Counted from the stretch's first letter, positions 313-15,948 are shown. The stretch is 15,948 nt of DNA from Deinococcales bacterium (GCA_013298595.1 JAAFIG010000024.1:55219-71166), one strand, 5' to 3'. Notes: generated by a model not told the origin, from the sequence alone. Numbers and translations: made by a program.

Positions 313-730
313 GCAGTACTTCTTTTTCAACAACTCGCCAAAAAGCACTAAAGCGTTTAACTCGCCCAGTAAAACTTGTTAAGTATTCAGGCGAGTAAAC
401 AATAATGCCTAAACCAGCTGCCTCGAGCGCATCGAGGGTTTTATCCAGTTCTGGGCTTGGAATCTGGGTGGTATGAACTTCGGTGCAATTGTGCAACTTG
501 GCAAAGGCAATAATTTCTTTTGCTTGGACACCCACGCAAATTCTGCTGTTGGCTCGAGTTGCTAATGCCTCGAGTGCGCCTTCAAAGATAAATTGTAACC
601 TAGGAAAAGCAATTTTTGTGGACTCAAGAAATGGTTGGTCAAAGACAAATATTGCAGGGGCATCGGGGTTAGCCAGTAATGCAGGGTCGGTGTTTGATAG
701 GCTTGCACCGTGTAGCCAAACCATTTTCAT
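305..730 (-). CDS. Photolyase-type N-terminal Rossmann-domain protein (stand-alone)
   Basis: This 141-residue protein resembles the alpha/beta antenna domain of DNA photolyases and cryptochromes. It starts with a short strand ([16 protein letters not shown]), followed by a VFD segment, an ICVG strand and an EVHTT segment near residue 85, where the equivalent photolyase strands lie. It has no FAD-binding domain; that domain is encoded by the preceding gene. The ATG at 730 overlaps the TGA of that gene (ATGA), with GGATGG as a possible ribosome binding site 5 nt upstream, so translation is probably coupled. Earlier in-frame ATGs exist at 739. The two products probably work together as a split photolyase. 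Family membership is inferred from motif pattern and context, not from an alignment. Confidence 0.65.
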
Positions 731-1512
731 GATGACCATCCAAATTGACCACCAAAAAGTTCTTGCTCAAGAACCGCATATGACTTGTTGAATGGACAAA
801 CGGCTGTGCAAGTGCCACACCATTGATGACTCGAGAACTGTGCGATGTTATCTTTGTTCATAAAGTATGGTTTATGCGAAAAAGTGCTGGCGACCCATTG
901 CCAAGATAACGCATTGCTGGCAATATCCCCATCGAGTAAGTGCTGCCTAAAAAAAGTAAACCCTGCTCGCCAATCTACTTTCCTAAAATGCACAGTGTAA
1001 GCTGCAAACCACAGCCGCTCATGGTTGTGTAAGTACCCCGTTTGGATCAGTTTTGCTACCCACGCATCAACACATGGTAGCCCTGTTTTGCCCTCGAGAA
1101 TATCGTCTGGTAAGTTTTTTTGCCAATGAGTTACATATTTGGGAGCTTCCAAATTTGCGAAAACTGCTGTACCTTCTTGCTCGAGTACCAAGGCAAAAAA
1201 TTCGTGCCAAGTCAATTGTTTTAAGAACTCATCGCGTTCACGCCCTTGTGCATGCGTGCGAATATGCGTTGCAACTTCAGTGATACTCAGCATCCCATGA
1301 CGCAAATACGCCGATAACCTCGAGACAGGCGCATTGGTATGGTTACGTCGCCCATAATTTCGAGCTGTGAATTCCTTGAGTTGTTTGACCGCAGCATTGC
1401 GCCCACCCTGTAATACGGGTGCTTGAGCCTCACCTGTGTACAAACCATGCAAGGCACTCTCGAGGTATGTGGTTATTTCAGCTCGACCCGAGAAAACTTG
1501 TTTTAATTCCAT
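727..1512 (-). CDS. Photolyase/cryptochrome FAD-binding domain protein
   Basis: This 261-residue protein corresponds to the helical FAD-binding half of DNA photolyase (FAD_binding_7 type). Diagnostic stretches are RLSAYLRHGMLS (about 65-76), WHEFFALVL (about 102-110), TGLPCVDAWVAKLIQTGYLHNHERLWFA, and the ASNALSWQWVAS motif that contacts flavin. Photolyases use these to bind FAD and repair UV dimers with blue light. The N-terminal antenna domain is missing and is encoded separately just downstream, so the usual domain order is reversed. The C-terminus carries CGTCTAVCP with cysteines at 232, 235 and 239, a spacing seen in iron-sulfur proteins; another Cys sits in TGLPC. Iron-sulfur photolyases (FeS-BCP, PhrB/CryB) exist, so a cluster is possible but unproven. 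The ATG at 1512 has only a weak ribosome binding site; it lies 48 bp after the atl gene. Confidence 0.8.
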   Translation of the reverse strand: MELKQVFSGRAEITTYLESALHGLYTGEAQAPVLQGGRNAAVKQLKEFTARNYGRRNHTNAPVSRLSAYLRHGMLSITEVATHIRTHAQGRERDEFLKQLTWHEFFALVLEQEGTAVFANLEAPKYVTHWQKNLPDDILEGKTGLPCVDAWVAKLIQTGYLHNHERLWFAAYTVHFRKVDWRAGFTFFRQHLLDGDIASNALSWQWVASTFSHKPYFMNKDNIAQFSSHQWCGTCTAVCPFNKSYAVLEQELFGGQFGWSS

Positions 1513-1560
1513 TCATTTATTATGGTCTTTGCTGTCTGTATAGCGCTTGTCTGTGAGTTA

Positions 1561-1890
1561 CTATTTTTGTGGTGTAAATAGCTTAGCTGTAAAGTTTTGA
1601 ATGCAATTGTGTTCAATCGCATGCCCTTCCGCTTCAAGTAAAGTCATTTGTGAAGCTTGCCAACGATGGGCTGTGGTTTTGATTTCACCATGATTGGCAA
1701 CAACTCGGTGCCAAGGTACAGATTCGCGTTCTTGTTCGGATAACATGGCGAGAATATAGGCGACATGGCGTGGCATAACTTCGAGTATTTCGCCAATCAG
1801 ACTGTAACTCGAGACTTGCCCTAGTGGAATTTGTTGACTTAACGTAAGGACTTCTTTTTTAATGCGTGCGAATGCAGCTGATTTTGCCAT
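1561..1890 (-). CDS. atl: Alkyltransferase-like (ATL/MGMT family) DNA base-flipping protein
   Basis: This 109-residue protein has the O6-alkylguanine DNA alkyltransferase C-terminal fold: a helix-turn-helix region (VSSYSLIGEILEVMPRHVAYIL, about 26-47) and the active-site motif PWHRVV at 59-64. The methyl-accepting Cys of the PCHRV motif is Trp here (W60). That replacement defines ATL proteins, which bind alkylated bases and hand them to nucleotide excision repair instead of repairing them directly. The length matches bacterial ATLs. GAGGA upstream of the ATG may serve as ribosome binding site; it lies inside a CTCGAG palindrome. It heads a run of co-directional DNA-repair genes and is divergent from the outer-membrane protein gene. 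Confidence 0.88.
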   Translation of the reverse strand: MAKSAAFARIKKEVLTLSQQIPLGQVSSYSLIGEILEVMPRHVAYILAMLSEQERESVPWHRVVANHGEIKTTAHRWQASQMTLLEAEGHAIEHNCIQNFTAKLFTPQK

Positions 1891-1946
1891 AATAGCTATC
1901 CTCGAGTCCTGAGAATTTTGAGTGTTTTGTGTATGTCATCATGGCG

Positions 1947-1983
1947 TTTGCCTCACGCGAAGCGTTAGGGCGTGGGCTACACT
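1947..1983 (+). promoter_or_regulatory. Probable leaderless promoter and nested inverted repeat before the beta-rich protein gene
   Basis: TACACT at 1978-1983 lies 7 nt before the ATG at 1991, with no Shine-Dalgarno sequence. This fits a -10 box that starts transcription at the start codon. Upstream, CACGC (1954-1958) and GCGTG (1970-1974) can pair around a nested CGC-GAA-GCG. The sequence is much more G+C-rich than its surroundings and looks like an interspersed-repeat type element. No convincing -35 box is seen. Confidence 0.4.
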
Positions 1984-1990
1984 CTTTAGT

Positions 1991-2929
1991 ATGAAACGTT
2001 TTCTTGGTTTATTGGTGATATTGTTTTCTGTGGCACAAGCTCAAACACTTGAAGTCAGTGCTGGATTACCGTTTACAGCACAAATTGCGATTTCAAATGT
2101 GGTGCTTTCGGATGTCATTTCGGTTGGGGCAGCTGTTTCAACAGAACGCGTTAAGGTAAGTGCGGATGGTGTGCTGGATTTCTCGGTGGTTGGGTCTTTG
2201 CAAGCTCGAGTGATTGCCGAAGTTGCCTATGTTGGACGTTTTCGGGTGCAGTTATTAGCTCGAGGTTCATTTGGTCCAATTGCCGCCAATCTTGGTGTGG
2301 CGTACTGGAATGCTGCGCCTGCGAATTTTGATCCTTTTGAAATTTTTGCAACCGATCCATTGCCAAATTCGGGTATTGGTTTCCGTACCGATTTAGGCAT
2401 TGGTTACCGTGTTAATCGAAATTTTTCGGTATTTGGTGCAGGGCGTTTTGGTTCGGATTTCTCGAGTTTTAGCCTTGAAGCTCGAGTCAGGGATGGTGAA
2501 TTTGAATTCCGAGGTGGTTTACTTGGTGCAGTACAAACCACCAATGCTGCTATTCTTGCCCAAGCCAGTGCCATTTACTCGCCAGAAGAATTGCCATTTA
2601 CTGTTTCACTGGGTGCTGGATTTGGTTTTACCCAAACAGGTTTAGCGTATGAAGGTCAATTAACCTTTGCTTGGATAGTGCTCGAGGAAGTATCGCTTTC
2701 GGTTAATGCTGTTTATCAACCGTGGCGAGTGGATGTATTACCATTTCGTGGGTCGCTTGAAGTGCGAATCAATCCAGGCTTTGGCACGATTTTGCTAACG
2801 GGTTATTTGGGGTATAACCAAGTTAATACTTGGGTCTACGGCGCACGAATTGCTTTTCGGATCACACTCGAAGAACTTTTTCCAAGCCCAGAAGAAGCTC
2901 GAGTCTCATCTGGCTTAATCCGAAAATGA
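1991..2929 (+). CDS. Secreted beta-rich (probable outer-membrane beta-barrel) protein, function unknown
   Basis: This 312-residue protein has a clear signal peptide (MKRFLGLLVILFSVAQAQ, cleavage after AQA). The mature part alternates polar and hydrophobic residues and is rich in Gly, aromatic and Val residues. Repeated strand-like segments such as GIGYRVNRNFSVFGAGRFG and LGAGFGFTQTGLAYEGQLTFAW are typical of outer-membrane beta-barrels. I recognise no catalytic motif. The frame stays open upstream to 1922, but the ATG at 1991 is the one followed by the signal peptide and preceded by a TACACT box. The gene ends 13 bp before pyrophosphatase, which has its own candidate -10 box. Barrel assignment is inference from composition. 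Confidence 0.7.
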   Translation: MKRFLGLLVILFSVAQAQTLEVSAGLPFTAQIAISNVVLSDVISVGAAVSTERVKVSADGVLDFSVVGSLQARVIAEVAYVGRFRVQLLARGSFGPIAANLGVAYWNAAPANFDPFEIFATDPLPNSGIGFRTDLGIGYRVNRNFSVFGAGRFGSDFSSFSLEARVRDGEFEFRGGLLGAVQTTNAAILAQASAIYSPEELPFTVSLGAGFGFTQTGLAYEGQLTFAWIVLEEVSLSVNAVYQPWRVDVLPFRGSLEVRINPGFGTILLTGYLGYNQVNTWVYGARIAFRITLEELFPSPEEARVSSGLIRK

Positions 2930-2935
2930 TACCTT
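2930..2935 (+). promoter_or_regulatory. Candidate -10 box for leaderless ppa transcript
   Basis: TACCTT ends exactly 7 nt before the ppa start codon and no ribosome binding site is present. The spacing equals that seen before the 1991 gene. It sits immediately after the stop codon of the previous gene, so read-through transcription is also possible. Confidence 0.35.
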
Positions 2936-2942
2936 CTACCCG

Positions 2943-3464
2943 ATGAAAAACCTTTATCACCTTCCCGCCGGTCCGAAGATTCCAGAAGTCATTCATGTTG
3001 TCATTGAAGTTCCTCGAGGCAGTGCTAATAAATATGAGTACGATAAAAGTCTTGGTGTGATTAAACTCGACCGAGTTTTGTATGCTGCTATGCAGTACCC
3101 AGGCGATTATGGTTTTATACCCAGTACCCTTGGTGGTGATGGTGACCCTCTCGATGCCCTGATTCTTTCAACCCATCCATTCTTGCCAGGTGTATTGGTC
3201 GAGTGTCGGGTGCTAGGTATGCTCGAGATGTCCGATGATAAGGGACGTGATGAAAAAATCTTGGCAGTACCTGCCGACGATCCACGCTGGGATGATTTGC
3301 AAAGCCTTGCTGATGTGCGTTCGCACCGTTTAGCCGAAATCGAACATTTCTTTCTCGAGTACAAAACCTTGGAGGGTAAAACAGTGACCTCCGAAGGTTG
3401 GCGACCCCGAGAAGATGCTTTGCAGTGCATTTTAGATGCTGTTGAACGTGGTAAAAAAGAGTAA
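2943..3464 (+). CDS. ppa: Inorganic pyrophosphatase (family I)
   Basis: This 173-residue soluble enzyme hydrolyses pyrophosphate to phosphate, which pulls biosynthetic reactions such as DNA, RNA and aminoacyl-tRNA synthesis forward. The family I signature DGDPLDALI lies at 66-74 and supplies metal-binding aspartates. Other conserved elements are IEVPRGSANKYEYD (21-34, with K30) and YPGDYGFIPSTLGGDGDP. Length is normal for the bacterial hexameric enzyme. No Shine-Dalgarno sequence precedes the ATG; a TACCTT box 7 nt upstream suggests a leaderless message. A strong hairpin terminator follows the stop codon. Confidence 0.97.
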   Translation: MKNLYHLPAGPKIPEVIHVVIEVPRGSANKYEYDKSLGVIKLDRVLYAAMQYPGDYGFIPSTLGGDGDPLDALILSTHPFLPGVLVECRVLGMLEMSDDKGRDEKILAVPADDPRWDDLQSLADVRSHRLAEIEHFFLEYKTLEGKTVTSEGWRPREDALQCILDAVERGKKE

Positions 3465-3477
3465 CTGAACACGTTTT

Positions 3478-3512
3478 AAGCAGCGCCCAAACAGTTTGGA
3501 CGCTGCTTTTTT
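3478..3512 (+). terminator. Rho-independent terminator after ppa
   Basis: A hairpin with arms GCAGCGCCCAAAC and GTTTGGACGCTGC (one mismatch) is followed directly by six T residues at 3507-3512. It lies 14 bp after the ppa stop codon. Confidence 0.9.
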
Positions 3513-3703
3513 ATACTTCATGTTCTCGAGCTAGGAAGTATAAAAATAACTTAGTGTTGACACCTAACGAGAATCATATACCCATTTGCAAAAAAATGCT
3601 GTGATTAAAACCTCAGACAACCCATGAACAACAACGTTAGACTATAGCTACACCCGAGCGAACAAGCAAAACACTTCCTAGCGCAACGGTGTAAGGAGGC
3701 GTT
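3513..3703 (+). promoter_or_regulatory. hpf upstream region with promoter elements, a palindrome and a possible SD-sequestering hairpin
   Basis: This 190-bp stretch holds no gene. TTGACA at 3557-3562 matches a perfect -35 box and lies inside the palindrome GTGTTGACAC (3554-3563), which could be an operator; the best -10 nearby (CATATA, 3575-3580) is poorly spaced. A second candidate pair is CAGACA (3614-3619) and TAGACT (3638-3643), 18 bp apart. A strong Shine-Dalgarno AAGGAGG (3693-3699) lies 4 nt before the hpf ATG. CTTCCT at 3674-3679 can pair with AGGAGG at 3694-3699, which would hide the ribosome binding site. Confidence 0.4.
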
Positions 3704-4243
3704 ATGAACGTCTACAAATTAGTTGGTCGTAACCTCGAGGTCACAGAAGCCATTCGTGAACACGTGCAACAACGATTATCGAAACTAGAACGATTTTCGC
3801 CGCATATTGTTGATGCAAAAGTGGTGCTCAGTGTCAAAAACGATGGACGAGCTAATGCGCCACATCGTGTTGAAATGCAGCTCAATGTTCCACACGGTGT
3901 GATCCGAGCTGAAGAAGCTGGAACAGATATGTACGCTGTCATAGATATGGCTGTTCATGTGCTTGAACGTCAATTAAAGAAATTTCGTACCAAACTGATT
4001 ACTCGAGAACAACGTGGTGATTACATTCCCGAATCGGCTTTGCCAGATGATGATGAAGAATTCCGACCAGAAATTGTGCGTAATAAGCGCTTTGAAGTTC
4101 GACCCATGACCCCAGAGGATGCTGCTGCCCAAATGGAAGCGCTAGGACACGATTTCTTTATGTTCGAGAATTCAAAAACTGAGCGGGTTAGTGTGGTCTA
4201 TAAACGCAAAGATGGGCATTATGGTTTACTCGAGCCACATTAG
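3704..4243 (+). CDS. hpf: Ribosome hibernation promoting factor, long form
   Basis: This 179-residue protein has two parts. Residues about 1-100 form the RaiA/YfiA fold (KLVGRNLEVTEAIREHVQQRLSKLERF, then VEMQLNVP and VIDMAVHVLERQLKKFRTKL). Residues about 120-179 form the dimerising tail (IVRNKRFEVRPMTPEDAAAQMEALGHDFFMFENSKTERVSVVYKRKDGHYGLLEP). Long HPF binds the 30S decoding centre and joins ribosomes into inactive 100S dimers in stationary phase or stress. Length fits the long form found outside gamma-proteobacteria. Translation should be strong from AAGGAGG. A bidirectional terminator separates it from the convergent crp-like gene. Confidence 0.96.
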   Translation: MNVYKLVGRNLEVTEAIREHVQQRLSKLERFSPHIVDAKVVLSVKNDGRANAPHRVEMQLNVPHGVIRAEEAGTDMYAVIDMAVHVLERQLKKFRTKLITREQRGDYIPESALPDDDEEFRPEIVRNKRFEVRPMTPEDAAAQMEALGHDFFMFENSKTERVSVVYKRKDGHYGLLEPH

Positions 4244-4249
4244 TGTAAT

Positions 4250-4283
4250 AAAAAAGCCGCTGCAAATTGCAGCGGCTTTTTTT
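4250..4283. terminator. Bidirectional terminator between hpf and the crp-like gene
   Basis: GCCGCTGCAA (4256-4265) and TTGCAGCGGC (4267-4276) form a 10-bp perfect inverted repeat flanked by six A residues on the left and seven T residues on the right. It can therefore end transcripts from both convergent genes. Confidence 0.93.
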
Positions 4284-4290
4284 ACTGGGT

Positions 4291-4917
4291 TTATATTTCG
4301 TTTTCGTCAAGGTCGTTGTGTTGTGCCATGGTCTCGAGCGAATGAATACTCAGCAGTGTGATACGGCGGTAACCGCTTTGTAATAAACCTTCGGAACGCA
4401 ATTCAGTAATGATTTTACTGACGCTTTCTCGAGTGCTGCTTGTGCCTTCGGCAATCAGTTCGTGGGTGGCACGAACATAGGTGCGCCCAGCTTCGTCTTG
4501 TCCACCAAGTGGTGTTTGCGCCAGTTGCAGTAAGTATCGGGCAACGCGTTGGCGTAGGTCGCCAATTTGCAAGTGGTATTCGTATGCCATGACGCGTTGT
4601 AATTGGTCGGACAAGCTGCGGGTCACTACGCCGAGATTATCGCCTGTGATGCTTTGTGGATCCACTGGGACAAGGGTTGCATCGGTTAGGGCTTCAACTT
4701 GGTGGTCGCGCCATTGTTTGTTTAGGGCTTCTTCGCCAAAGTAATCGCCTGGTAGTACGTGGCGCACAGTCAAGACGCGTCCTTTTGGAGTAAGTTTAGC
4801 AATGCGGATTAAGCCACTTTCGACACGGAACAAAGACAATGCTGGGTCGCCTTCGTAGTATACGGTTTGTCCACGGCGGTAACGCATTTGGTGTGGGCGA
4901 TTCATTCCTAAGGTCAT
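4291..4917 (-). CDS. CRP/FNR-family transcriptional regulator (LdrP/SdrP-like)
   Basis: This 208-residue regulator has an N-terminal cyclic-nucleotide-binding-type beta-roll (about 10-95) and a C-terminal winged helix with recognition helix STRESVSKIITEL (about 161-173). It has no cysteine, so no FNR-type iron-sulfur cluster. The phosphate-binding cassette reads GEEALNKQWRDHQVEAL and lacks the Arg-Ser/Thr-Ala that contacts cAMP in E. coli CRP, so it may act without cAMP, as SdrP and LdrP of Thermus do. The start is set by AAGGAG 7 nt before the ATG at 4917; the frame continues upstream without support. It is the third gene of the litR operon, 42 bp after the desaturase-type gene, which supports a role like LdrP, an activator of light-induced carotenoid and photolyase genes. 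Orthology is inferred. Confidence 0.85.
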   Translation of the reverse strand: MTLGMNRPHQMRYRRGQTVYYEGDPALSLFRVESGLIRIAKLTPKGRVLTVRHVLPGDYFGEEALNKQWRDHQVEALTDATLVPVDPQSITGDNLGVVTRSLSDQLQRVMAYEYHLQIGDLRQRVARYLLQLAQTPLGGQDEAGRTYVRATHELIAEGTSSTRESVSKIITELRSEGLLQSGYRRITLLSIHSLETMAQHNDLDENEI

Positions 4918-4959
4918 GGGGTTGCTCCTTGCATTTTTAGCGGTTATGCTCCGCACGAG

Positions 4960-6528
4960 TTACGCTTTTGTTTGACGAGAAAAGTTCGATTTATGGGCGT
5001 TGAGGTACCGTTGGCTGCTGCGAGCGGCGTTATAACCGCTGACCGTGACACCAAGAGTGCCTTGTCCTGGAAAAATGGTTTCGCCAGCCATGTATAAGCC
5101 GGGTACACCAGAAGCGTGATGCAGCGCATTAAAATTTGCGCTGTGAGGCATTTGGGGAATGCCACCAACCCTTCCGAGGCTGTGTAATGTGAATCGCTCA
5201 AAGGTGCGTGGGGAACCACTCTCGAGCAAGACAATGCCATCGGAGAAACCTGGGAAAAGTGTTTCGAGTCGCCGTAAAATACGGTGTTCAAGCACTTGTT
5301 TTTGTTCACGGTAAGTATCTTCTGTGATGCCAATCCATGTGGTTGGGTTGACATGGGTAGAAATGGTGATGCTACGGTAACCTGCTGGTGCGCGAATGCG
5401 GTCTTCGTGACTCGAAATGGAGACCAGAAAATTCAGGGTTAAACCTTTTTCATCGTAATCGGTGATTTGTTCAAAGAGTAAAGTGTCGGCAGGTAAAGCA
5501 CTTTCTTTAATGCCGATGTACATGGTGAAAGCTCCCCAAATAGCGGGCATTTTCTCGAGTTTTTGCTGTAACGGCTCGAGTCGGCTGTCGGTTATTAGGT
5601 TAAGTGTGTCGTGGATTGGTGCGGTGCTGATAACAATTGGTGAAATAAAGTTGCGCCCGTGGGTTTCGACCCCTGCAATCTTGTTTTTCTCGAGTAAAAT
5701 GGTGCGAGCACGGGTTGCATAATGTACATTTCCACCATTGCTTTGAATGTAATTGGCAAAATCTTCGGCGATACTGGCTAAGCCGCCTGGAATGTACTGA
5801 GCGCCAAAACGGTAAACCTCGAGCGCATATGCCCCGTTTGGCAAGGCACATTCTTGGCTGGTGCATTGCATTGAGTCAAGCAGTTGTCCATCAATAAAGG
5901 CTTTGTGGGCTGGGTCGGTGATGCCTTGTTGCTCGAGGGCATGACCAACGGTATTACCTAAGTTGCCCAGCACACTTAATACACCAGGATGAATCCCCTG
6001 AGCTGTGTCCCAGATATCCCAAGCGGTTTTCCAAGGCATACTGGGGTAATGCCTAGCAGCGTGGTGCATGGTATCGGCAAGGTTCTGGATCTTTTGCCAG
6101 AATTGCTTTTTTTCTTTTTGCTGCCCGGGAAAGGTCTGCTCGAGTTGGTTTTGCCATTTGGCTCGAGTTCCTGGTACATAGGCTTGGCGCTCGTTGAGGT
6201 GTAAACGCATGACGGGGTCGAGGTTTGGGTGTTGGCGTTTTAAACCTAATTGTTGATAAATATTTTGCAGTAAACCATTTGGCTCGAGTCCAGCACAGAC
6301 TGTCGCTCCAACAGCAAACGAGAAGGTACCAAGAGCATGTTTGCGTTCGTAACGAGCAGCGCAACCGCCCGGATGAATGTCGCGCTCGAGGATACGTACT
6401 TTAAAACCATTTTTACAAAGCATTGCCCCTGCGACCAAACCAGCAAAGCCTGCGCCAATAATGGTGACATCGGCGTGTAAGTCCTCGCGTTCAACTCGCT
6501 TTGATTTTGGTAGCAATGCTTGGGTCAT
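4960..6528 (-). CDS. CrtI/CrtD-family carotenoid FAD oxidoreductase (desaturase or isomerase type)
   Basis: This 522-residue flavoprotein has a dinucleotide-binding motif GAGFAG at 25-30 followed by the FAD-ribose Glu at 48 (RILERD) and GGCAARYE. The C-terminus has GLYMAGETIFPGQGTLGVTVSGYNAARS, the FAD-binding signature of the phytoene desaturase/CrtD/carotene isomerase superfamily. Members desaturate, isomerise or hydrate carotenoid backbones at the membrane. The exact substrate cannot be read from sequence; CrtD-like 3',4'-desaturation is one option because Deinococcus and Thermus carotenoid pathways use related enzymes. The ATG overlaps the litR stop by 4 bases (ATGA), so translation is coupled to the B12 photoreceptor, which points to light control. 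Confidence 0.85.
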   Translation of the reverse strand: MTQALLPKSKRVEREDLHADVTIIGAGFAGLVAGAMLCKNGFKVRILERDIHPGGCAARYERKHALGTFSFAVGATVCAGLEPNGLLQNIYQQLGLKRQHPNLDPVMRLHLNERQAYVPGTRAKWQNQLEQTFPGQQKEKKQFWQKIQNLADTMHHAARHYPSMPWKTAWDIWDTAQGIHPGVLSVLGNLGNTVGHALEQQGITDPAHKAFIDGQLLDSMQCTSQECALPNGAYALEVYRFGAQYIPGGLASIAEDFANYIQSNGGNVHYATRARTILLEKNKIAGVETHGRNFISPIVISTAPIHDTLNLITDSRLEPLQQKLEKMPAIWGAFTMYIGIKESALPADTLLFEQITDYDEKGLTLNFLVSISSHEDRIRAPAGYRSITISTHVNPTTWIGITEDTYREQKQVLEHRILRRLETLFPGFSDGIVLLESGSPRTFERFTLHSLGRVGGIPQMPHSANFNALHHASGVPGLYMAGETIFPGQGTLGVTVSGYNAARSSQRYLNAHKSNFSRQTKA

Positions 6529-7454: not shown

Positions 7455-7483
7455 ATTTTCCTAGGTTTTGCGAAGCGAGCTAA

Positions 7484-7539: not shown

Positions 7540-7553
7540 GGGCTACTGGTGAT

Positions 7554-7567: not shown

Positions 7568-7586
7568 TGCAGAACAAGGGTTTTTA

Positions 7587-8018: not shown

Positions 8019-8024
8019 TTAGCA

Positions 8025-9108: not shown

Positions 9109-9115
9109 AGGCAAT

Positions 9116-9217
9116 AGCATAGCATCTGGTTTGGTAGTTTCTTATACATAATGTACTAATATAAAATATATACTAATATTAAGTTCAGAGTTCATCAAGT
9201 GCTGAACAAATAAGGAG
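9116..9217. promoter_or_regulatory. Divergent hxlR/yceI control region
   Basis: For hxlR (minus), TATGCT at 9116-9121 is a -10 candidate 7 nt from the start codon. For yceI (plus), TATACT at 9169-9174 is the best -10, and AAGGAG (9212-9217) is a clear ribosome binding site 7 nt before the ATG. Between them lie the palindrome TACAT-A-ATGTA (9145-9155) and two direct copies of TACTAATAT (9154-9162 and 9171-9179) spaced 17 bp, plausible HxlR binding sites that overlap the yceI -10. Confidence 0.5.
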
Positions 9218-9224
9218 AAATACC

Positions 9225-9755: not shown

Positions 9756-9766
9756 ATAACACATGA

Positions 9767-9789
9767 ATCACTGCCTACAAGCAGTGGTT
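9767..9789 (+). other. Intergenic hairpin, possible attenuator
   Basis: CACTGC (9769-9774) pairs with GCAGTG (9781-9786), with extra weak pairs outside. Only a short T stretch follows, so it is a poor terminator; it may instead shape or stabilise the message between yceI and the VOC gene. Confidence 0.4.
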
Positions 9790-9808
9790 TATGCTTGAAA
9801 GAATAACC

Positions 9809-10291
9809 ATGAATATTCACCCAGAAACCCGAATCGGGCATATCCACTTAAAAGTTGCTGATCTCGAGCGAGCCATTGCGTTTTACCGAGATATTCTTGG
9901 TTTTGCACTGACGCAACGATATGGCGAAGGGGCAGCCTTTTTGTCAGCTGGTGGTTACCATCACCATATTGGCTTAAATACTTGGGAAAGCCTTGGTGCA
10001 CCGCCACCACCGCCACACAGCACAGGTTTATATCATACTGCTATTTTGTACCCAAATCGCCAGGAATTAGCTCGAGCACTGCATAATTTGATCAAGCACA
10101 ACTACCCAATAGATGGCGCTTCGGATCATGGTGTTTCGGAAGCCATTTATCTGCGAGACCCAGATGGAAATGGTGTGGAACTTTACCGAGACCGAGACCC
10201 CGCCGATTATCCTCGAGATGCCAGTGGTAACTTAACAATGTATTCGCGTCTACTCGATTTACAAAAACTGTTAAGCGAACATCAAATTTGA
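9809..10291 (+). CDS. VOC-family protein, ring-cleavage dioxygenase/glyoxalase type (CatE/MhqE-like)
   Basis: This 160-residue protein has two beta-alpha-beta-beta-beta VOC modules. Likely metal ligands are the His in IGHIHLKV, the His in GLYHTAIL and the Glu in NGVELYRD. The segments AFLSAGGYHHHIGLNTW and SEAIYLRDPDGNGVELYRDR are those of the extradiol-dioxygenase-like proteins CatE, MhqE and MhqA of Bacillus, which open catechol or quinol rings. The ATG at 9809 gives a start close to the family; an ATG at 9791 adds six residues. It lies upstream of an MhqD-like esterase, 7 bp away, which supports a role in quinone detoxification. The exact substrate is unknown. Confidence 0.85.
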   Translation: MNIHPETRIGHIHLKVADLERAIAFYRDILGFALTQRYGEGAAFLSAGGYHHHIGLNTWESLGAPPPPPHSTGLYHTAILYPNRQELARALHNLIKHNYPIDGASDHGVSEAIYLRDPDGNGVELYRDRDPADYPRDASGNLTMYSRLLDLQKLLSEHQI

Positions 10292-10298
10292 GGAATGT

Positions 10299-10937
10299 AT
10301 GAATCTATTACATCAAGGTTTAACACCCATTATTTCTGGTTCGTTAGATACAGCCAAAACAGCAGTTATTTTGCTGCACGGACGTGGTGCGAGTCCCGAA
10401 GATATTCTTGGAATTGCCGAGCATCTGAATGCCGCAGACACAGTATTTGTTGCCCCTCGAGCTAGAAATAATACTTGGTATCCACAACGATTTATCAGAC
10501 CCAACCTTGATAATGCGCCGTGGTTAGATTCGGCTTTAAACGTTGTCGAGGAGAGCATCAAACTGACTCATTTACCACTCGAGCAAATTGTTCTTCTGGG
10601 TTTTTCGCAAGGTGCATGTTTAGCCCTCGAGTATGCCATGCAAACTGGTGGAAAATTTGGGGCAGTGATTGGTTTTTCTGGTGGTCTGATTGGTGACCAA
10701 AACGAACTGGGTATATTGGGTAAACCCATGCATAACACACCTATTTTTATTGGCTGTGACGATCAAGATTTTCATATCCCACTCGAGCGAGTGCAGCAAA
10801 GTGCGCGTATTCTCTCGAGTTTAAACGCCAATGTCGATTGTCGGATTTACCAAGGTTTAGGGCATAGCATCAATACTGATGAACTCGAGGCAGCCCAAAA
10901 ACTGATTGCCCAAGTTTCGGGTACACTCGAGCCATGA
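10299..10937 (+). CDS. Carboxylesterase/phospholipase-type alpha/beta hydrolase (MhqD-like)
   Basis: This 212-residue hydrolase has the nucleophile elbow GFSQGA with Ser103, an oxyanion segment LLHGRGAS (26-32), a likely acid in GCDDQD (154-157) and His189 in GLGHS. This is the small esterase group that includes Bacillus MhqD/YodD and bacterial phospholipase/carboxylesterase proteins. MhqD is co-regulated with ring-cleavage dioxygenases under quinone stress. GAGGA lies 4 nt before the ATG. It ends in a 4-base ATGA overlap with the next gene, so the two are translationally coupled. The gene is notable for eight CTCGAG copies in 639 bp. Confidence 0.88.
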   Translation: MNLLHQGLTPIISGSLDTAKTAVILLHGRGASPEDILGIAEHLNAADTVFVAPRARNNTWYPQRFIRPNLDNAPWLDSALNVVEESIKLTHLPLEQIVLLGFSQGACLALEYAMQTGGKFGAVIGFSGGLIGDQNELGILGKPMHNTPIFIGCDDQDFHIPLERVQQSARILSSLNANVDCRIYQGLGHSINTDELEAAQKLIAQVSGTLEP

Positions 10938-11548
10938 ATTTTACACTGGCAGATTTGAGTACCAACGAACGCTATAAATTACTCATAAGCACAATTGTGC
11001 CGCGTCCTATTGCTTGGATCTCGAGCCTGAACACCAATGGTTCGGTTAATTTAGCCCCATTTAGTGCTTTTAATTATATGGGGTCAGACCCAGCTATTAT
11101 TGCTGTATCACCAGCCGAAGGTAAACAAACTTTAGATAATATTCGCCGCGAAAAAGAATTTGTGGTCAATATTGTCACTGTAGATTTACTCAAGGCAATG
11201 AATTTAACAGCCACTGATTTCCCAATTGGAATCAGTGAACTCGAGATAGCAGGTTTAAGCGCTTTGCCAAGTGTGCATATGAAAGCCCCTCGAGTTGCCC
11301 AAAGCCCTGTGCAAATGGAATGCAAATTGCACACGATTCTTGAAATTGGACGCAACCGAGTTGTTATCGCCGAAGTACTCGAGCTGCACATTGCTGATAA
11401 GTTAATAGACAGCAAAAAATTCTATGTGGACTCGAGTGGCTTAGATGCTTTGGGGCGAATGGGTGGAGCTGGTGGTTATAGCACCACAAGAGATTCCTTA
11501 ACACAAACTCGGTTAACCTATGAAGCATGGCAGGAACTGCAAAAATAG
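10934..11548 (+). CDS. Flavin reductase-like FMN-binding split-barrel protein
   Basis: This 204-residue protein belongs to the flavin reductase-like/flavoredoxin group. The PRPIAWISSLNTNGSVNLAPFSAFNYMGSDPAIIAVS segment (about 22-58) binds FMN in this family, followed by TLDNIRREKEFVVNIV and a later ECKLHTILEIGRNRVVIAEVLELHI strand. Such proteins reduce free flavin or pass electrons to partner oxygenases. Its start overlaps the esterase stop, making it the last gene of the hxlR-controlled group. In that setting it may supply reduced flavin or reduce quinones; the specific role is inferred. No strong terminator follows. Confidence 0.9.
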   Translation: MNFTLADLSTNERYKLLISTIVPRPIAWISSLNTNGSVNLAPFSAFNYMGSDPAIIAVSPAEGKQTLDNIRREKEFVVNIVTVDLLKAMNLTATDFPIGISELEIAGLSALPSVHMKAPRVAQSPVQMECKLHTILEIGRNRVVIAEVLELHIADKLIDSKKFYVDSSGLDALGRMGGAGGYSTTRDSLTQTRLTYEAWQELQK

Positions 11549-11588
11549 GCTTATTTGTTTAGATGTATCACAAACCACCATCGGATTG

Positions 11589-11641
11589 TTGACAAAAACC
11601 GTAAACTACTCGAGTTAGGAATTGAAATTCCTCGTAAGGAG
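11589..11641 (+). promoter_or_regulatory. Sulfurtransferase upstream signals
   Basis: TTGACA (11589-11594) is a perfect -35 match, but no good -10 follows at normal spacing. AGGAATT (11617-11623) and AATTCCT (11626-11632) form a perfect inverted repeat with a 2-bp gap, a possible operator. AAGGAG (11636-11641) is a strong ribosome binding site 8 nt before the ATG. Confidence 0.4.
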
Positions 11642-11649
11642 AAAACACC

Positions 11650-12504
11650 ATGAGCTATGTCCATCCCGAAGTATTGGTCAGCACCGACTGGGTGCTCGAA
11701 CACCACAAAGACGCAAATATTCGTATTATCGAAGTTTCCGAAGACTTCTTGTTATACGAACAAGGGCACGTTCCAGGCAGTGTTAAAATTGACTGGCACA
11801 CAAACCTGCAACGCGAAGATATCCGTGATTTCATTGACGCAGCAGGCTTTGAGAAACTGGTCGAACAATTTGGCATCAGCAACGACACAACAGTTGTGTT
11901 TTACGGCGATAAAAACAATTGGTGGGCAGCCTATGCTTTCTGGTTTTTTAAGTATAACGGACACCAAAAAGCCCACTTAATGAATGGCGGACGTGCCAAA
12001 TGGGTAGCCGAAACCAAACCCCTCGAGAAAGAAACCCCAACCTACGCCCCAGCCAAATACACCGTTGCTTACCGAGACGCAAGCATTCGAGCCTTTATGC
12101 CAGATGTGCTCAAGCATTTACTCGAGGTCAATGCAGGTCGAGGCGCATTGGTAGATGTTCGTAGTGCCGATGAATTCAGTGGCAAACTGACCCACATGGC
12201 AGACTACCCACAAGAAGGTGCACTGCGTGGTGGGCACATTCCTGGTGCAATCTCACAACCGTGGGCACAAACTGTCAACCCCGATGGAACTTTCAAAAGC
12301 TTTGAAGAACTCTCCAACATGTACGGCAACAAAGGTGTGACTGCAGATAAAGATGTAATTGCTTACTGCCGTATTGCAGAACGCTCGAGCCACACTTGGT
12401 TTATCCTTAAATACCTGCTTGGTTACGATAAAGTCCGTAACTACGATGGTTCATGGACAGAATGGGGCAATGTGGTTGGTGTGCCAATCGAAAAAAGTGT
12501 TTAA
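11650..12504 (+). CDS. Thiosulfate/3-mercaptopyruvate sulfurtransferase (two-domain rhodanese)
   Basis: This 284-residue protein has two rhodanese domains. The N-terminal one (about 8-130: [47 protein letters not shown]) has Asp where a catalytic Cys would be and is inactive. The C-terminal one (about 160-280) has [24 protein letters not shown] and the active loop [10 protein letters not shown] with Cys240. That loop (CRI-x-ERSSH) is typical of the actinobacterial/Deinococcus CysA-type thiosulfate sulfurtransferases rather than the CGSGVTA loop of mercaptopyruvate enzymes. It moves sulfane sulfur from thiosulfate to cyanide or thiols. It is a single gene with its own leader and terminator. 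Confidence 0.93.
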
Positions 12505-12516
12505 GCCCACTACAAT

Positions 12517-12547
12517 AAAAGTGGAACCCAACAGGGTTCCACTTTTT
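12517..12547. terminator. Bidirectional terminator between sulfurtransferase and rseB-like gene
   Basis: AAAAGTGGAACCC (12517-12529) and GGGTTCCACTTTT (12534-12546) form a 13-bp perfect stem around AACA, with flanking A and T tracts. It serves both convergent transcripts. Confidence 0.93.
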
Positions 12548-12562
12548 GTTTGCTGTACAGCT

Positions 12563-13387
12563 CTACTTAAACTGCCCAAAACTCGAGAGCAAAACCCCAA
12601 GATTCAGCGGACTCCGAATACTGCCTGCGGTTCGCTCGAGTTCGGGGCGTAACAAATTACCAATCACCCAAACAAAAGCACCAGCAACATTCCTCGAGAC
12701 AACTTTTCCACTGTTTCCTGTACCAATTGGTGCAAAAATCATCACAAGCACACTGATACCGTTACTGGCACGTACCTCGAGTGCATTGAGGTTATCTTTA
12801 CCTACGGTACGCGGACGAATATCGAATAAATGAAACCCAGCTGGTAGCACCAAACCTGTTTCACGTTGCACAAATGCCTCGAGTTTTGGGTGAGGCTCGA
12901 GTTTCATTAGTTGTTTAACATCTTTGCGTTGTTGAGGTTTATTCTCTAAACTGGTAAAACGTGCATCATAAGTTATGATGTTATCTGCGTCACGTTCTTG
13001 AACGGCTAAGCGAACCAAGTATTGCCGATCTAACCAAATCGAAAAACTGGGTACACCAGCAATTTTTGGTATTAAATCAATACGCCATGTTTCGCGCCCA
13101 GCGATGTTTTCGCCAAAAAAAGCTTTGCTATTAAAATTTTCGCGCAACCACCGAGGAGATAATGGTGGGGGGGCAGGTATTTCGGCTCGAGTTTGTTCAG
13201 GTTCGGCTCGGGGCGGGAATAATTGGCGTTCTTTGACCACGCCTTGCCATTTGAGTTTAGCTTCGGCTTGCAATGCCCGCATCATAAAACTAATTGGATT
13301 ACTTGGCAGATCGGGAATGGTTTGTGCCAACGCCACCCACGAAGATATTGCCAGTAAAAAAAATAGCAACCAAGAACTGCGTTTCAT
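12563..13387 (-). CDS. RseB/MucB-like periplasmic sigma-factor regulatory protein
   Basis: This 274-residue protein has a signal peptide (MKRSSWLLFFLLAISSWVALA, cleavage before QT). The middle part (FGENIAGRETWRIDLIPKIAGVPSFSIWLDRQYLVRLAVQERDADNIITYDARFTSLEN) resembles the LolA-like N-terminal domain of RseB/MucB, which binds envelope lipids or lipoproteins and controls the anti-sigma factor. It directly follows the ECF sigma and anti-sigma genes, 5 bp after the anti-sigma stop, which supports the call. I chose the ATG at 13387 with GGGGTGG 8 nt upstream; a GTG at 13399 overlaps the previous gene. The C-terminal part is less like classic RseB. Confidence 0.7.
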   Translation of the reverse strand: MKRSSWLLFFLLAISSWVALAQTIPDLPSNPISFMMRALQAEAKLKWQGVVKERQLFPPRAEPEQTRAEIPAPPPLSPRWLRENFNSKAFFGENIAGRETWRIDLIPKIAGVPSFSIWLDRQYLVRLAVQERDADNIITYDARFTSLENKPQQRKDVKQLMKLEPHPKLEAFVQRETGLVLPAGFHLFDIRPRTVGKDNLNALEVRASNGISVLVMIFAPIGTGNSGKVVSRNVAGAFVWVIGNLLRPELERTAGSIRSPLNLGVLLSSFGQFK

Positions 13388-13392
13388 GAGTA

Positions 13393-13776
13393 TTACCACC
13401 CCGTTGTTGCTTCTTGGTAAACAGTATAGGCTTCACTGCTATCGGCACTGGCAGCAGGTGAAAACATCACAAATGCCACAGCTGCTACAGCCGCAGCCGC
13501 AAAACCAGCGACAGCTCGAGACAATGTTAAGCGCAAGACTTTTTGTTTAGAACGCACAGCCTTAACCGCCAGCAAAGTTGGTTGTACCACAGCCATATCC
13601 ACAGGACGAAGCGCCGCTGTGCCAGATAAATACGCTGACCATTCTTCGCCACGGGTACGCTCGAGTTTCAAAGCCGCTAAAACATGATCGGTACTCGCCA
13701 TATCCCGAGGTTCGAGGGAAGCAGCACTGGAAAGGAAGGCATCCCATTGGGTATCGGTTTTGGTGTCGTTATTCAT
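13393..13776 (-). CDS. Membrane-anchored anti-sigma factor with an internal duplication
   Basis: This 127-residue protein has one membrane segment (AVAGFAAAAVAAVAFVMF, about 88-105) and a short outer tail. It has no Cys, so it is not a zinc-binding anti-sigma factor. The cytoplasmic half consists of two copies of a 35-residue unit: W11-DAFLSSAASLEPRDMA-x5-LAALK at 11-37 and W46-SAYLSGTAALRPVDMA-x5-LLAVK at 46-72. Its ATG overlaps the sigma stop (ATGA), the usual coupling of sigma and anti-sigma. The role follows from position and topology; the sequence itself is not one I recognise. Confidence 0.78.
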   Translation of the reverse strand: MNNDTKTDTQWDAFLSSAASLEPRDMASTDHVLAALKLERTRGEEWSAYLSGTAALRPVDMAVVQPTLLAVKAVRSKQKVLRLTLSRAVAGFAAAAVAAVAFVMFSPAASADSSEAYTVYQEATTGW

Positions 13777-14324
13777 GGTTTATATCCCCATCCTTCCAGT
13801 GTTTCACGCAAAGCAGTTCTGGCTCGGCTCATACGGCTTTTAACCGTGCCCACTTCGATGCCAAGTACCTCGGCTACTCCAGCGTAATCAAGATTGCCAA
13901 ATTCAACAAGTGTAAATGTTTCACGAAATTCTGGTTTGAGTTTTGCTAAGGCTTTCTCGAGCGCAACCCGTAAATCTTGGCGTTCCACAGCCGCAAGTGG
14001 CGTATCGGTGTTATCGGCTGCATCCATTGGTGTATCGATATCCAGGGCACTATCGGGGTGTTTACGTAAACGGGCATAACAGCAATTTAAGGCAATGCGA
14101 TGCAACCAAGTGGTAAATTGGGCTTGTTCACGAAACGAAGGTAAAGCCCTGAAAGCGGCTAAAAACGCATCCTGCACAACATCATACGCCTCTTCGCGCC
14201 CAACAATTCTCGAGGACACCGCGTGCACTCGAGGGCTATGACGGCGTACCAATTCATCAAATGCCTCATCCTGCCCACGACGAGCCAAAGCCACCAAATG
14301 ACCATCGTCAAGTTCTGACAGCAT
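13773..14324 (-). CDS. ECF (sigma-70 family, sigma-E type) RNA polymerase sigma factor
   Basis: This is an about 183-residue sigma factor. Region 2 is EAFDELVRRHSPRVHAVSSRIVGREEAYDVVQDAFLAAFRALPSFREQAQFTTWLHRIALN; region 4 is LKPEFRETFTLVEFGNLDYAGVAEVLGIEVGTVKSRMSRARTALRETL, with the helix-turn-helix near the C-terminus. It directs RNA polymerase to envelope-stress genes and is held by the anti-sigma factor encoded next. The frame is open far upstream into thiB, so the start must be chosen: ATG at 14324 (MLSELDDGHLVALARRG) begins where the family begins. ATGs at 14363 and 14372 are alternatives; no good ribosome binding site marks any of them. Confidence 0.92.
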   Translation of the reverse strand: MLSELDDGHLVALARRGQDEAFDELVRRHSPRVHAVSSRIVGREEAYDVVQDAFLAAFRALPSFREQAQFTTWLHRIALNCCYARLRKHPDSALDIDTPMDAADNTDTPLAAVERQDLRVALEKALAKLKPEFRETFTLVEFGNLDYAGVAEVLGIEVGTVKSRMSRARTALRETLEGWGYKP

Positions 14325-14361
14325 CGGAGCAGGGGAAAAGCGTAAGTTCAAGATACCGACC

Positions 14362-14400
14362 ATTGTATCCATTGGATGACGGGATAGCCAAAAAAGTTCC
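14362..14400 (-). promoter_or_regulatory. Candidate promoters of the sigma operon
   Basis: On the minus strand TACAAT (14362-14367) with TTGGCT 18 bp upstream is a vegetative-type candidate. GGAACTT (14394-14400) followed after 15 nt (counted from GGAAC) by GTC (14378-14380) resembles an ECF sigma-E promoter, but with a spacer about 2 bp short. The second would allow self-activation of the sigma gene. Confidence 0.3.
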
Positions 14401-14412
14401 CAATGGGTAAAA

Positions 14413-15441
14413 TCAGCGTTTTTGCAGCACCACTCGAGTCCAAGCTTCAATCCAACGCTGCTGATTAACAGCCATGATATTGGCAGAAAAACTCGAGATT
14501 TGCGTTTCCTTTGGGCGAATTGCAAAAGAAAAAACATCAGGTAAAGCAATCCCTTTGATTGCAGGGTAAACCCACATATTAGTAGGAATATCGGCTTGGG
14601 TTCTTGGCTCGAGCATAAAATCAATAAATTTGTGGGCTAAATCCGAATTCTTAGTTCCTCTCAGCACTGCCACCCCTTCGATTTGCAAGAAACTCGAGCC
14701 AGGCAGTAATAAATTAGCTGTGGTTGCCGTTTTACCATCACCATAAAAAACTTCAGCGGCTGGACTGGAGCTATACGAAACCACAATTGGTCTGGTACCA
14801 CCATTACGAGAAAAATCCGAGTAATACGCGGCTTCCCAACCTGCCGCAACTTTGACATCATTGGTTTTTAACCCAGCCCAGAACTCGAGTGCTTTGCGTT
14901 CACCAAAGAATTTCAGGGTTGCAAAATAAAAAGCTAAACCAGGGCTAGAAGTAGCAGGATTTTGCACGACCAACAAACTCTTATACGCAGGTTTGGTTAA
15001 ATCCTCGAGCGACTTTGGCAAAGCCAGTTTGGCTTTCTCAAACCAAGCCAGATCGTAATTGAGGCAAACAAACCCATAATTCACAGGAGAAATTCGCCAC
15101 TTGGCATCGAGAATCGAAAATTTCTCGAGTGCTGCCGCCATCTTCGGACGATATGACTCGAGGATATCAGCCTGTAATGCCTTTGCCATTAAACTATTAT
15201 CAATTCCAAAAACCACATCAGCAATCGGATTGCTTTTGGTTAGAATCAATTTATTGGTCATTGCACCAGCATCGCCGCCTTTAACAAAAGCCAGCTTGAT
15301 ATTCTCTTTTGCCTCAAAGGCAGCCACAACATCTTTACTCAGATTAAACGAATCGTGTGTTATAACAGTTAAAACCCGTTGTTGAGCACTCGAGAAACCA
15401 AACAACACCGCAATACCAAGAACCACCACTGCTTTTTTCAT
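14413..15441 (-). CDS. thiB: Thiamine ABC transporter substrate-binding protein
   Basis: This 342-residue exported protein has a signal peptide (MKKAVVVLGIAVLFGFSSAQQ). The start of the mature part, VLTVITHDSFNLSKDVVAAFEAKENIKLAFVKGGDAGAMTNKLILTKSNPIADVVFGIDNSLM, matches the TbpA/ThiB family, as do VNYGFVCLNYD, LVVQNPATSSPGLAF and VVSYSSSPAAEV. It binds thiamine and its phosphates in the periplasm for uptake. A TPP riboswitch precedes it, which confirms the vitamin. The permease and ATPase genes (thiP, thiQ) are not next to it; the following gene is the ECF sigma factor, so those partners must be elsewhere. GGGGA serves as ribosome binding site and is part of the riboswitch terminator hairpin. 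Confidence 0.95.
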   Translation of the reverse strand: MKKAVVVLGIAVLFGFSSAQQRVLTVITHDSFNLSKDVVAAFEAKENIKLAFVKGGDAGAMTNKLILTKSNPIADVVFGIDNSLMAKALQADILESYRPKMAAALEKFSILDAKWRISPVNYGFVCLNYDLAWFEKAKLALPKSLEDLTKPAYKSLLVVQNPATSSPGLAFYFATLKFFGERKALEFWAGLKTNDVKVAAGWEAAYYSDFSRNGGTRPIVVSYSSSPAAEVFYGDGKTATTANLLLPGSSFLQIEGVAVLRGTKNSDLAHKFIDFMLEPRTQADIPTNMWVYPAIKGIALPDVFSFAIRPKETQISSFSANIMAVNQQRWIEAWTRVVLQKR

Positions 15442-15469
15442 AAAAAAATCCCCTTTCCAAGGAAAGAGG
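15442..15469 (-). terminator. Riboswitch-controlled terminator touching the thiB start codon
   Basis: On the minus strand CCTCTTTC and GAAAGGGG form an 8-bp stem (one G-U pair) with loop CTTG, followed by A and seven T residues that run directly into the ATG. The 3' arm also contains the GGGG of the ribosome binding site, so the hairpin could block both transcription and translation. Confidence 0.8.
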
Positions 15470-15499
15470 AAGCGTCAACACCCACAACTAATGGGTATT

Positions 15500-15581
15500 G
15501 GTCACGCTCCCTACGGCGGTATTAACCGCGTCAGGTTCAGGGGAACTCTCTCAGCCGAAACGTTCGGCACTCCCGTTGACC
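15500..15581 (-). ncRNA. TPP riboswitch (THI element)
   Basis: The minus strand carries the THI-box consensus: GGGAGTGCC, GGCTGAGAGAG, CCCTGAACCTGA, a GCGGTTAATACCGC stem and GTAGGGA. The closing stem P1 pairs GGTCAACG with CGTGACC. In this class, thiamine pyrophosphate folds the aptamer and turns expression off. The 3' side GGGAGCGT can instead pair with ACGCTTCC just before the terminator (15468-15475), a plausible antiterminator; binding of TPP would free the terminator at 15442-15469. Confidence 0.96.
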
Positions 15582-15762
15582 AATGAGCAGCATAAATCAA
15601 AACTCGAGGGGCGTTTGGCTAAGGTAAAATTGATTTTAAATCTCGAGTGGTCAAAAATAACAAGGGTTTTTCTAGCTCAAGGGTAGACTTCTCCTTATGT
15701 TTTTTCGTCTAACTCCAATTACAATTCTTAAAGCCACTTCCCGAAGAAAGAAAGGAGGTTTT
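15582..15762. promoter_or_regulatory. Divergent control region between thiB riboswitch and lipoprotein gene
   Basis: Toward thiB, TATGCT (minus, 15589-15594) is a -10 candidate placing the start of RNA near the aptamer P1 stem; no good -35 is visible. Toward plus, TAGACT (15684-15689) lies exactly 7 nt before an ATG at 15697 that is in frame with the lipoprotein, and AAAGGAGG (15751-15758) lies 4 nt before the ATG at 15763. Two CTCGAG copies occur at about 15603 and 15642. Confidence 0.4.
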
Positions 15763-15948
15763 ATGTTCACAGCCGCATTACTGGCATCCGCCCTGACCGC
15801 TTGTCCTCAAGCTCCAGCAATTCAAGAACAACAAGTATCAACCCAAGCTTTAACCACCCCTCGAGATATCATGCTTCACGGTATCATCGCTGGGCTAACC
15901 TTCCAAAGTAACCAAGGTTTTACATTGCAAAACAACTCGAGTATTCAT
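15763..15948 (+). CDS. Lipoprotein, 5' part only (runs off the window)
   Basis: The first 62 codons are present. The product begins MFTAALLASALTACPQAP; LTAC is a lipobox, so Cys14 should be lipidated and the protein anchored to a membrane. The following region is Gln- and Thr-rich, and no domain is recognisable yet. The ATG at 15763 has an excellent ribosome binding site 4 nt upstream. An in-frame ATG at 15697 would add 22 residues ending in a basic RRKKGG stretch, which would make a more normal signal-peptide n-region. Function unknown. Confidence 0.65.
   Translation, partial: MFTAALLASALTACPQAPAIQEQQVSTQALTTPRDIMLHGIIAGLTFQSNQGFTLQNNSSIH

What the first reader, a model, noticed from the sequence alone, without database searches (positions are those of the whole stretch)
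422..15941. CTCGAG is a genome-peppering palindrome, a HIP1-like system with a different word
About 94 copies were counted by hand in 15.9 kb, some thirty times the rough expectation. Copies use all three codon frames: in the esterase gene alone they encode PLE, PRA and LSS. They also lie in intergenic DNA, so protein sequence or codon bias cannot explain them. Selection or a mutational/conversion process must act on the DNA word itself. HIP1 (GCGATCGC) in cyanobacteria is the only close analogy I know, and it is often linked to a solitary DNA methyltransferase. Possible roles are methylation-directed repair, recombination, chromosome structure or DNA-uptake tagging.
Basis: partly seen in the sequence, partly recalled or inferred. 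Interest (0 to 1): 0.88.

Follow-up and report, generated by a model that had tools for sequence, protein, structure and literature searches.

The report
CTCGAG peppers a Deinococcales family's genomes
One six-letter DNA word, CTCGAG, occurs every ~170 bases throughout the genomes of a little-known family of bacteria related to Deinococcus, tens of times more often than chance, in genes and between them, and something in the cell evidently reads the exact word; it resembles the HIP1 word of cyanobacteria, but here no matching methylating enzyme common to the genomes was found.

Summary
Confirmed and extended. The window holds exactly 94 CTCGAG (about 3 expected); its genome (4.58 Mb) holds 27,159, one per 169 bp. 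All four genomes of the family have ~27,000, as does one genus of a second family at similar density. Other Deinococcales are weaker or lack it. Copies fill all three reading frames and intergenic DNA. Where the amino acids allow CTCGAG it is used 66%, 63% and 36% of the time by frame (1-4% expected). In orthologous DNA 72.7% identical, 65% of sites are conserved against 19% of all hexamers. Intergenic ln(obs/exp) is 3.9-4.3 in five samples. New here: a CTCGAG within ~20 bp of another is strongly disfavoured (0.28 v 0.75, p~1e-66). One-base variants or other words nearby have little or no effect, so the exact word is read, over tens of bases. That short reach fits local occupancy by a sequence-specific DNA-binding factor better than uptake, Chi or kilobase-range mismatch repair. 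No DNA-methyltransferase orthologue is shared by all CTCGAG-rich genomes, so the HIP1-style methylase link is unsupported, not excluded. Other palindromes are heavily avoided in the same genomes. Best filed as a HIP-like element of a new phylum: new variant of a known kind. The reading factor is unknown.

The parts
422..15941 (.). All 94 CTCGAG sites, first base at: 422, 553, 569, 830, 1093, 1180, 1319, 1459, 1808, 1901, 2205, 2259, 2461, 2481, 2681, 2898, 3013, 3222, 3354, 3525, 3734, 4002, 4229, 4333, 4428, 5221, 5554, 5575, 5689, 5818, 5932, 6139, 6162, 6283, 6385, 6546, 6761, 7047, 7106, 7237, 8149, 8187, 8257, 8396, 8473, 8610, 8899, 9085, 9264, 9678, 9863, 10071, 10212, 10456, 10578, 10626, 10782, 10814, 10884, 10926, 11020, 11240, 11289, 11378, 11431, 11609, 12022, 12121, 12384, 12582, 12635, 12693, 12776, 12878, 12896, 13186, 13515, 13660, 13956, 14209, 14228, 14433, 14492, 14608, 14693, 14884, 15004, 15124, 15157, 15389, 15603, 15642, 15860, 15936
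   Evidence: exact count; expectation 3.2
10456..10461 (+). CTCGAG read as P-R-A in the esterase gene (xCT CGA Gxx frame)
10578..10583 (+). CTCGAG read as L-E in the esterase gene (CTC GAG frame)
10814..10819 (+). CTCGAG read as L-S-S in the esterase gene (xxC TCG AGx frame)
3525..3530 (.). CTCGAG in the gap between the pyrophosphatase ORF (2943-3464) and the HPF-like ORF (3704-4243)
11609..11614 (.). CTCGAG in the gap between the flavin-reductase-like ORF (10934-11548) and the sulfurtransferase-like ORF (11650-12504)
15603..15941 (.). four CTCGAG (15603, 15642, 15860, 15936) outside the listed genes, beyond the TPP riboswitch at 15490-15584

Best explanation
CTCGAG is a highly iterated palindrome of this Deinococcales lineage. 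A nearly uniform, weak, genome-wide force holds it at high density; the force acts on the exact DNA word and not on codons or proteins. Most likely the force is selection for occupancy by a sequence-specific DNA-binding factor, such as a nucleoid-type protein or another protein that binds CTCGAG, with a reach of about 20 bp per site. Each isolated site is favoured by a scaled strength of about 4-5 (2Nes or its equivalent), and a second site within ~20 bp adds much less because one bound factor already covers it. Shown here: enrichment, frame independence, conservation in place, near-uniform strength, and a short-range neighbour effect that needs the exact word. Inferred: that a protein is bound, that the force is selection and not biased repair, and that the function is architectural.
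For: Genome count 27,159; clade distribution; 36-75x over a masked model. Conserved 134/206 between species against 19% for all hexamers, the highest of all hexamers with enough data. Codons inside sites are conserved far more than the same codons outside: CTC .79 v .38, GAG .85 v .51, TCG .91 v .39. Synonymous opportunities used 66/63/36% against 1.7/4.0/1.2% expected. Strength ln(obs/exp) is 3.9-4.3 in intergenic DNA of five samples and 3.0-4.7 in coding frames. Pair O/E 0.15 at 6-9 bp, 0.44 at 12-18, ~1 beyond 60; generic inverted repeats do not show this. P(CTCGAG|Leu-Glu) is 0.20 within 12 bp of another site against ~0.77 beyond 90 bp, p~1e-66 for <18 bp v 60-300 bp, and the effect is seen in all four family genomes. 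One-base variants or unrelated words nearby have little or no effect. Divergent, promoter-type gaps are not depleted.
Against: No reading protein was identified and no binding data exist. Over larger distances the spacing is random (CV ~1.04), so a regular lattice is excluded. A second site still carries about half the favour (S 2.7 against 5.2), so redundancy is partial. A biased repair or conversion process carried out by a bound enzyme could also be weakened next to an occupied site. Transition-type near-misses are about 1.2-3 times expectation, which a simple equilibrium with non-functional near-misses does not predict.
Confidence: 0.42

Rival explanations
1. HIP1-type, methyltransferase-linked: a solitary enzyme methylates CTCGAG and methylation-biased mismatch repair or a related conversion process ratchets near-misses into CTCGAG; the word itself may have no function.
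For: In cyanobacteria every genome with a highly overrepresented word has an MTase able to methylate it, and the ratchet model exists. CTCGAG-specific MTases exist elsewhere: m5C in Halorubrum and an orphan CTCGAG MTase in Nocardia. G000 has a C5 MTase without an evident adjacent nuclease (L123; C15:67964-68851), with orthologues in G001 (74%) and G012 (59%).
Against: No orthologous MTase group from PF01555, PF02384, PF07669, PF00145 or PF02086 spans all CTCGAG-rich genomes; L123 has no close relative among the C5 hits of G002 and G003. The G012 copy sits beside an HNH-nuclease-like ORF, like an R-M pair. The repair model saturates at ~1000 nt, whereas the neighbour effect here ends at ~20-45 bp. 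No consistent C-to-T hot spot at either cytosine.
Confidence: 0.28
2. Biased repair or gene conversion by a sequence-specific enzyme without base methylation, for example a nicking or mismatch-processing protein that restores or creates CTCGAG.
For: The strength is nearly uniform in coding and non-coding DNA, as a transmission bias would give; foreign-looking low-GC genes lack sites, so accumulation is slow.
Against: A conversion process acting site by site gives no repulsion between perfect sites unless the enzyme is titrated by them. Near-misses are not depleted.
Confidence: 0.15
3. Self-recognition tag: DNA-uptake sequence or Chi-like site that marks own DNA for import or recombination.
For: Very high copy number, and foreign islands lack it.
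Against: One site per 169 bp is far more than one per fragment, and the neighbour effect ends at ~20-45 bp, not at fragment length. The word is short and palindromic, so it has no direction, unlike the known uptake and Chi sequences (my knowledge).
Confidence: 0.08
4. Codon-pair or protein-level effect (Leu-Glu), or restriction-site bookkeeping with no force on the word.
For: Just over half of the coding sites are in the CTC GAG frame; in GC-rich relatives such as G008 most sites are in that frame.
Against: Two other frames and intergenic DNA show a similar strength; codons outside the word do not show the conservation.
Confidence: 0.02

Closest known systems
HIP1 (GCGATCGC) and alternate HIPs of cyanobacteria (Elhai 2015, PMC4390886)
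   Same: Short palindrome, greatly overrepresented over the whole genome, clade-wide but lost or weak in some relatives.
   Different: Different phylum; word of 6 and not 8; 5,930 per Mb against 300-2,700 for HIP1; O/E 30 for a hexamer, above the 15.5 quoted for GGCGCC in a Calothrix strain, the top hexamer of that survey; no MTase common to the carriers found; a neighbour effect of ~20-45 bp measured here.
Orphan CTCGAG methyltransferase of Nocardia (PMC4752239)
   Same: Same hexamer, carried as a non-restriction mark.
   Different: There CTCGAG clusters near dnaA are described; here it covers the whole genome. No orthologue was looked for directly.
DNA uptake sequences of Neisseriaceae and Pasteurellaceae (PMC1939737)
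   Same: Short word enriched genome-wide.
   Different: Those are about 9-12 bp and ~1 per kb (my knowledge); this one is a 6-bp palindrome at 1 per 169 bp with only short-range redundancy.
Dam/GATC-MutH methyl-directed mismatch repair
   Same: Short palindrome read by a DNA-repair circuit would be an analogue.
   Different: Range ~1 kb; no MTase common to the carriers found; MutH was not searched.

Membership tests
Highly iterated palindrome (HIP) | palindromic word extremely overrepresented over the whole genome | tested here: met
Highly iterated palindrome (HIP) | present in all reading frames and in intergenic DNA | tested here: met
Highly iterated palindrome (HIP) | maintained over evolutionary time at orthologous positions | tested here: met
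Highly iterated palindrome (HIP) | accompanied by a methyltransferase able to methylate the word | tested here: inconclusive
   no orthologous MTase in all carriers; different enzymes of the same specificity, or genes missing from incomplete genomes, are not excluded
HIP1 proper | word GCGATCGC, in cyanobacteria | tested here: not met
   word is CTCGAG; the host is Deinococcales, from the record title of G001's matching contig and its same-genus kinship
XhoI-type restriction-modification | XhoI endonuclease gene (PF04555) | tested here: inconclusive
   no match in 18 genomes, but the control genomes gave none either
DNA uptake sequence / Chi | redundancy range equal to fragment or kilobase length | tested here: not met
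   redundancy ends at ~20-45 bp
DNA uptake sequence | biased uptake of tagged DNA | not testable with these tools
   needs transformation assays
Nucleoid-protein binding site | an abundant protein binds the word in vivo | not testable with these tools
   needs pull-down or occupancy mapping; the footprint-like exclusion is indirect evidence

The most novel reading that the evidence does not exclude
A phylum-deep system in which an abundant sequence-specific protein decorates the chromosome at ~27,000 CTCGAG sites, each covering ~20 bp, so that weak selection for occupancy has rewritten about half of all synonymous opportunities in the genome: a sequence-encoded nucleoid without DNA methylation.
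Probability: 0.3. Interest if true: 0.93.

Novelty: new variant of a known kind. Interest (0 to 1): 0.8.

Why it matters
HIP1 has stayed unexplained for decades, partly because it occurs in one phylum and is entangled with its methyltransferases. A second, stronger and apparently independent case in Deinococcales, graded from absent (G004) through intermediate (G008, G059) to extreme (f1, g11), allows a comparative test. The site strength (about 4 in log units) and the short redundancy range can be measured from sequence alone and are numbers that any mechanism must reproduce. The same measurement can now be made for HIP1.

Tried and rejected
Methyltransferase orthology over five Pfam families in 15 genomes: no common enzyme. 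MTases of G000 by neighbourhood: L004 lies beside an ORF that I read as NotI-like, L015 beside a 307-aa ORF, both R-M-like; L123 has no evident adjacent nuclease, but its G012 relative lies beside an HNH-nuclease-like ORF (my reading of the ORFs, no family search run). XhoI endonuclease PF04555: nothing, but the control was silent too. Hairpin avoidance as cause of the repulsion: generic inverted repeats show only a slight deficit at 6-9 bp. Codon-pair bias: rejected by the other frames and intergenic DNA. Cytosine-deamination signature: none consistent. Promoter exclusion: none. Genome-contig scan with the CrtI-like protein gave one locus.

Full report
OBSERVATION. The window has exactly 94 CTCGAG where its composition predicts 3.2; the next commonest palindromic hexamers have 13. 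The genome has 27,159 in 4,582,226 bp, one per 169 bp, while the reversed word GAGCTC occurs 15 times. In 1.2 Mb sampled from the genome the density is 5.7 per kb, ~70 times a trinucleotide model built with the sites masked.

WHO HAS IT. The same-genus genome (G001) and both other family members (G002, G003) have 26,600-28,200 copies each. In a second family one genus (G012, G016) has 21,868 in 3.5 Mb and 14,690 in 1.9 Mb, G008 has 13,552 (GC 67%), and G004 only 683. Of the 111 genomes held for the phylum the rest are lower in density. I built no tree, and I cannot say where Deinococcus itself stands.

NOT CODONS, NOT PROTEIN. Coding and intergenic densities are similar (6.0 and 5.0 per kb). 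Where the protein sequence would permit CTCGAG it is used 66% of the time for Leu-Glu, 63% for [APTS]-Arg-[AVGDE] and 36% in the Ser frame, against 1.7, 4.0 and 1.2% if codons were chosen independently. Expressed as ln(odds observed/odds expected), coding values run 3.0-4.7 in the four family genomes. Intergenic values, ln(obs/exp), are 4.00, 4.09, 3.90, 4.00 and 4.34 in G000, G001, G002, G003 and g11. G008 and G059 show about 1.5-2.7 in all frames, G004 none. The trait is therefore graded within the order; the G059, G004 and g11 samples are small and partly taken around MTase genes.

CONSERVATION. In 43.7 kb of alignable DNA between G000 and G001 (72.7% identity) 134 of 206 sites are intact in both, 65%, against 19% for hexamers in general; it is the most conserved hexamer. 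With the amino acid held constant, CTC, GAG and TCG codons inside a site are conserved at 79, 85 and 91%, outside at 38, 51 and 39%. Long genes without any site are mostly of low GC, including what I read as a surface-polysaccharide locus and a defence-type locus, which suggests recent acquisition and slow accumulation.

THE EXACT WORD IS READ, AT SHORT RANGE. Site pairs closer than ~60 bp are too rare: O/E 0.15 at 6-9 bp, 0.32 at 9-12, 0.44 at 12-18, 0.7-0.8 at 18-45, ~1 beyond. The same shows in synonymous choice. A Leu-Glu pair is written CTCGAG in 20% of cases within 12 bp of another site, 35% at 12-18, ~55% at 18-45 and 71-77% at 45-300; <18 against 60-300 bp is 0.28 against 0.75, p~1e-66. 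All four family genomes show it, with the range ending at ~20-24 bp in three (pooled) and ~45 bp in G000. Generic GC-matched inverted repeats are not depleted in this way, so mRNA or DNA hairpins are not the reason. A near-miss one base away, or any of eight unrelated hexamers, has little or no effect when nearby (counts for near-misses are small). Something distinguishes CTCGAG from its one-base variants and treats two copies within ~20 bp as partly redundant.

MECHANISM. These facts ask for a trans-acting, sequence-specific factor and a weak, nearly uniform force of about 4-5 in scaled units, falling to 2.7 beside another site. Long-range functions (mismatch-repair strand marking with ~1 kb range in Elhai's model; uptake tags; Chi) would make neighbours redundant over hundreds of bases, which is not seen. 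Selection for local occupancy by a DNA-binding protein fits best. A conversion process driven by a bound enzyme is the main alternative, because an occupied site could also shield its neighbourhood.

METHYLATION. HIP-type words in cyanobacteria always come with a capable MTase, so I searched PF01555, PF02384, PF07669, PF00145 and PF02086 in 15 genomes and clustered the encoded proteins. No cluster spans the carriers. The nearest is a C5 MTase shared by G000, G001 and G012 (59-74%), not matched among the C5 enzymes of G002 and G003; its G012 version sits beside an HNH-type ORF. CTCGAG MTases are known elsewhere (Halorubrum; Nocardia), so different enzymes with one specificity remain possible, and the carrier genomes are 58-94% complete. 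Near-miss counts are raised for all three transitions (1.2-3.2 times) without consistent preference for either cytosine.

OTHER PALINDROMES. In the same genomes palindromic hexamers other than CTCGAG have a median O/E of 0.18-0.41 (0.71 and 0.82 in G008 and G004), and 27-40% of them are below 0.1. The pattern is patchy between genomes and looks like restriction-site avoidance. CTCGAG is the exception by far; AGCGCT (1.25-2.3) is the only other one clearly above expectation in all carriers.

NOVELTY. The phenomenon is HIP-like: 'works like' is supported, membership in HIP1 proper is not. It is denser than HIP1 (5,930 against 300-2,700 per Mb). My searches of the open-access library found no report of CTCGAG overrepresentation in this group, which is limited evidence of novelty.

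LIMITS. Gene calls are mechanical ORFs; neutral expectations are Markov or codon-independence models; only ~2.1 Mb from the family's four genomes could be read; alignable orthologous DNA is biased to conserved genes; equilibrium is assumed when odds ratios are read as a selection strength.

Noticed in passing
whole genome sample: Extreme avoidance of other palindromes in CTCGAG-rich genomes: in G000 GGCC 10 against 1,200 expected, GAGCTC, TTCGAA, GGCGCC, CCGCGG and TCGCGA nearly absent; patterns differ between genomes, like a history of many restriction systems.
   Followed up: partly
CTCGAG flanks, all family genomes: The 8-bp palindrome CCTCGAGG is avoided, most in G002 (2 against 104 expected), less in G000 (78/229), G003 (23/68) and G001 (58/92); in G008 it is instead the commonest extension.
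   Followed up: partly
window 38-147: Dispersed element with inverted ends (GTATCTCAC...GTGAGATAC), related copies in G000, partial ones in G001 and G003; folds well as RNA (z -3.7); no Rfam match.
   Followed up: partly
window 15490-15584, minus strand: TPP riboswitch (Rfam RF00059, 66 bits) upstream of an ORF that I read as a thiamine-type ABC binding protein (14413-15441).
   Followed up: no
L229 16378-19822, L092 6639-9089, L078 244-1234, L090 4267-6238: Long genes without CTCGAG, GC mostly 0.25-0.40: apparent recently acquired islands.
   Followed up: partly
G000 Leu-Glu sites: The neighbour effect in G000 has two steps, a steep one to ~16 bp and a plateau at ~0.55 to ~44 bp; the other three genomes pooled show only the first.
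   Followed up: no
L123 1444-2574 (G000:C15); L124 in G012: C5 methyltransferase without an evident adjacent nuclease, between siderophore-transport-like ORFs and an RNA-MTase-like ORF; the relative in G012 is beside an HNH-type ORF.
   Followed up: partly
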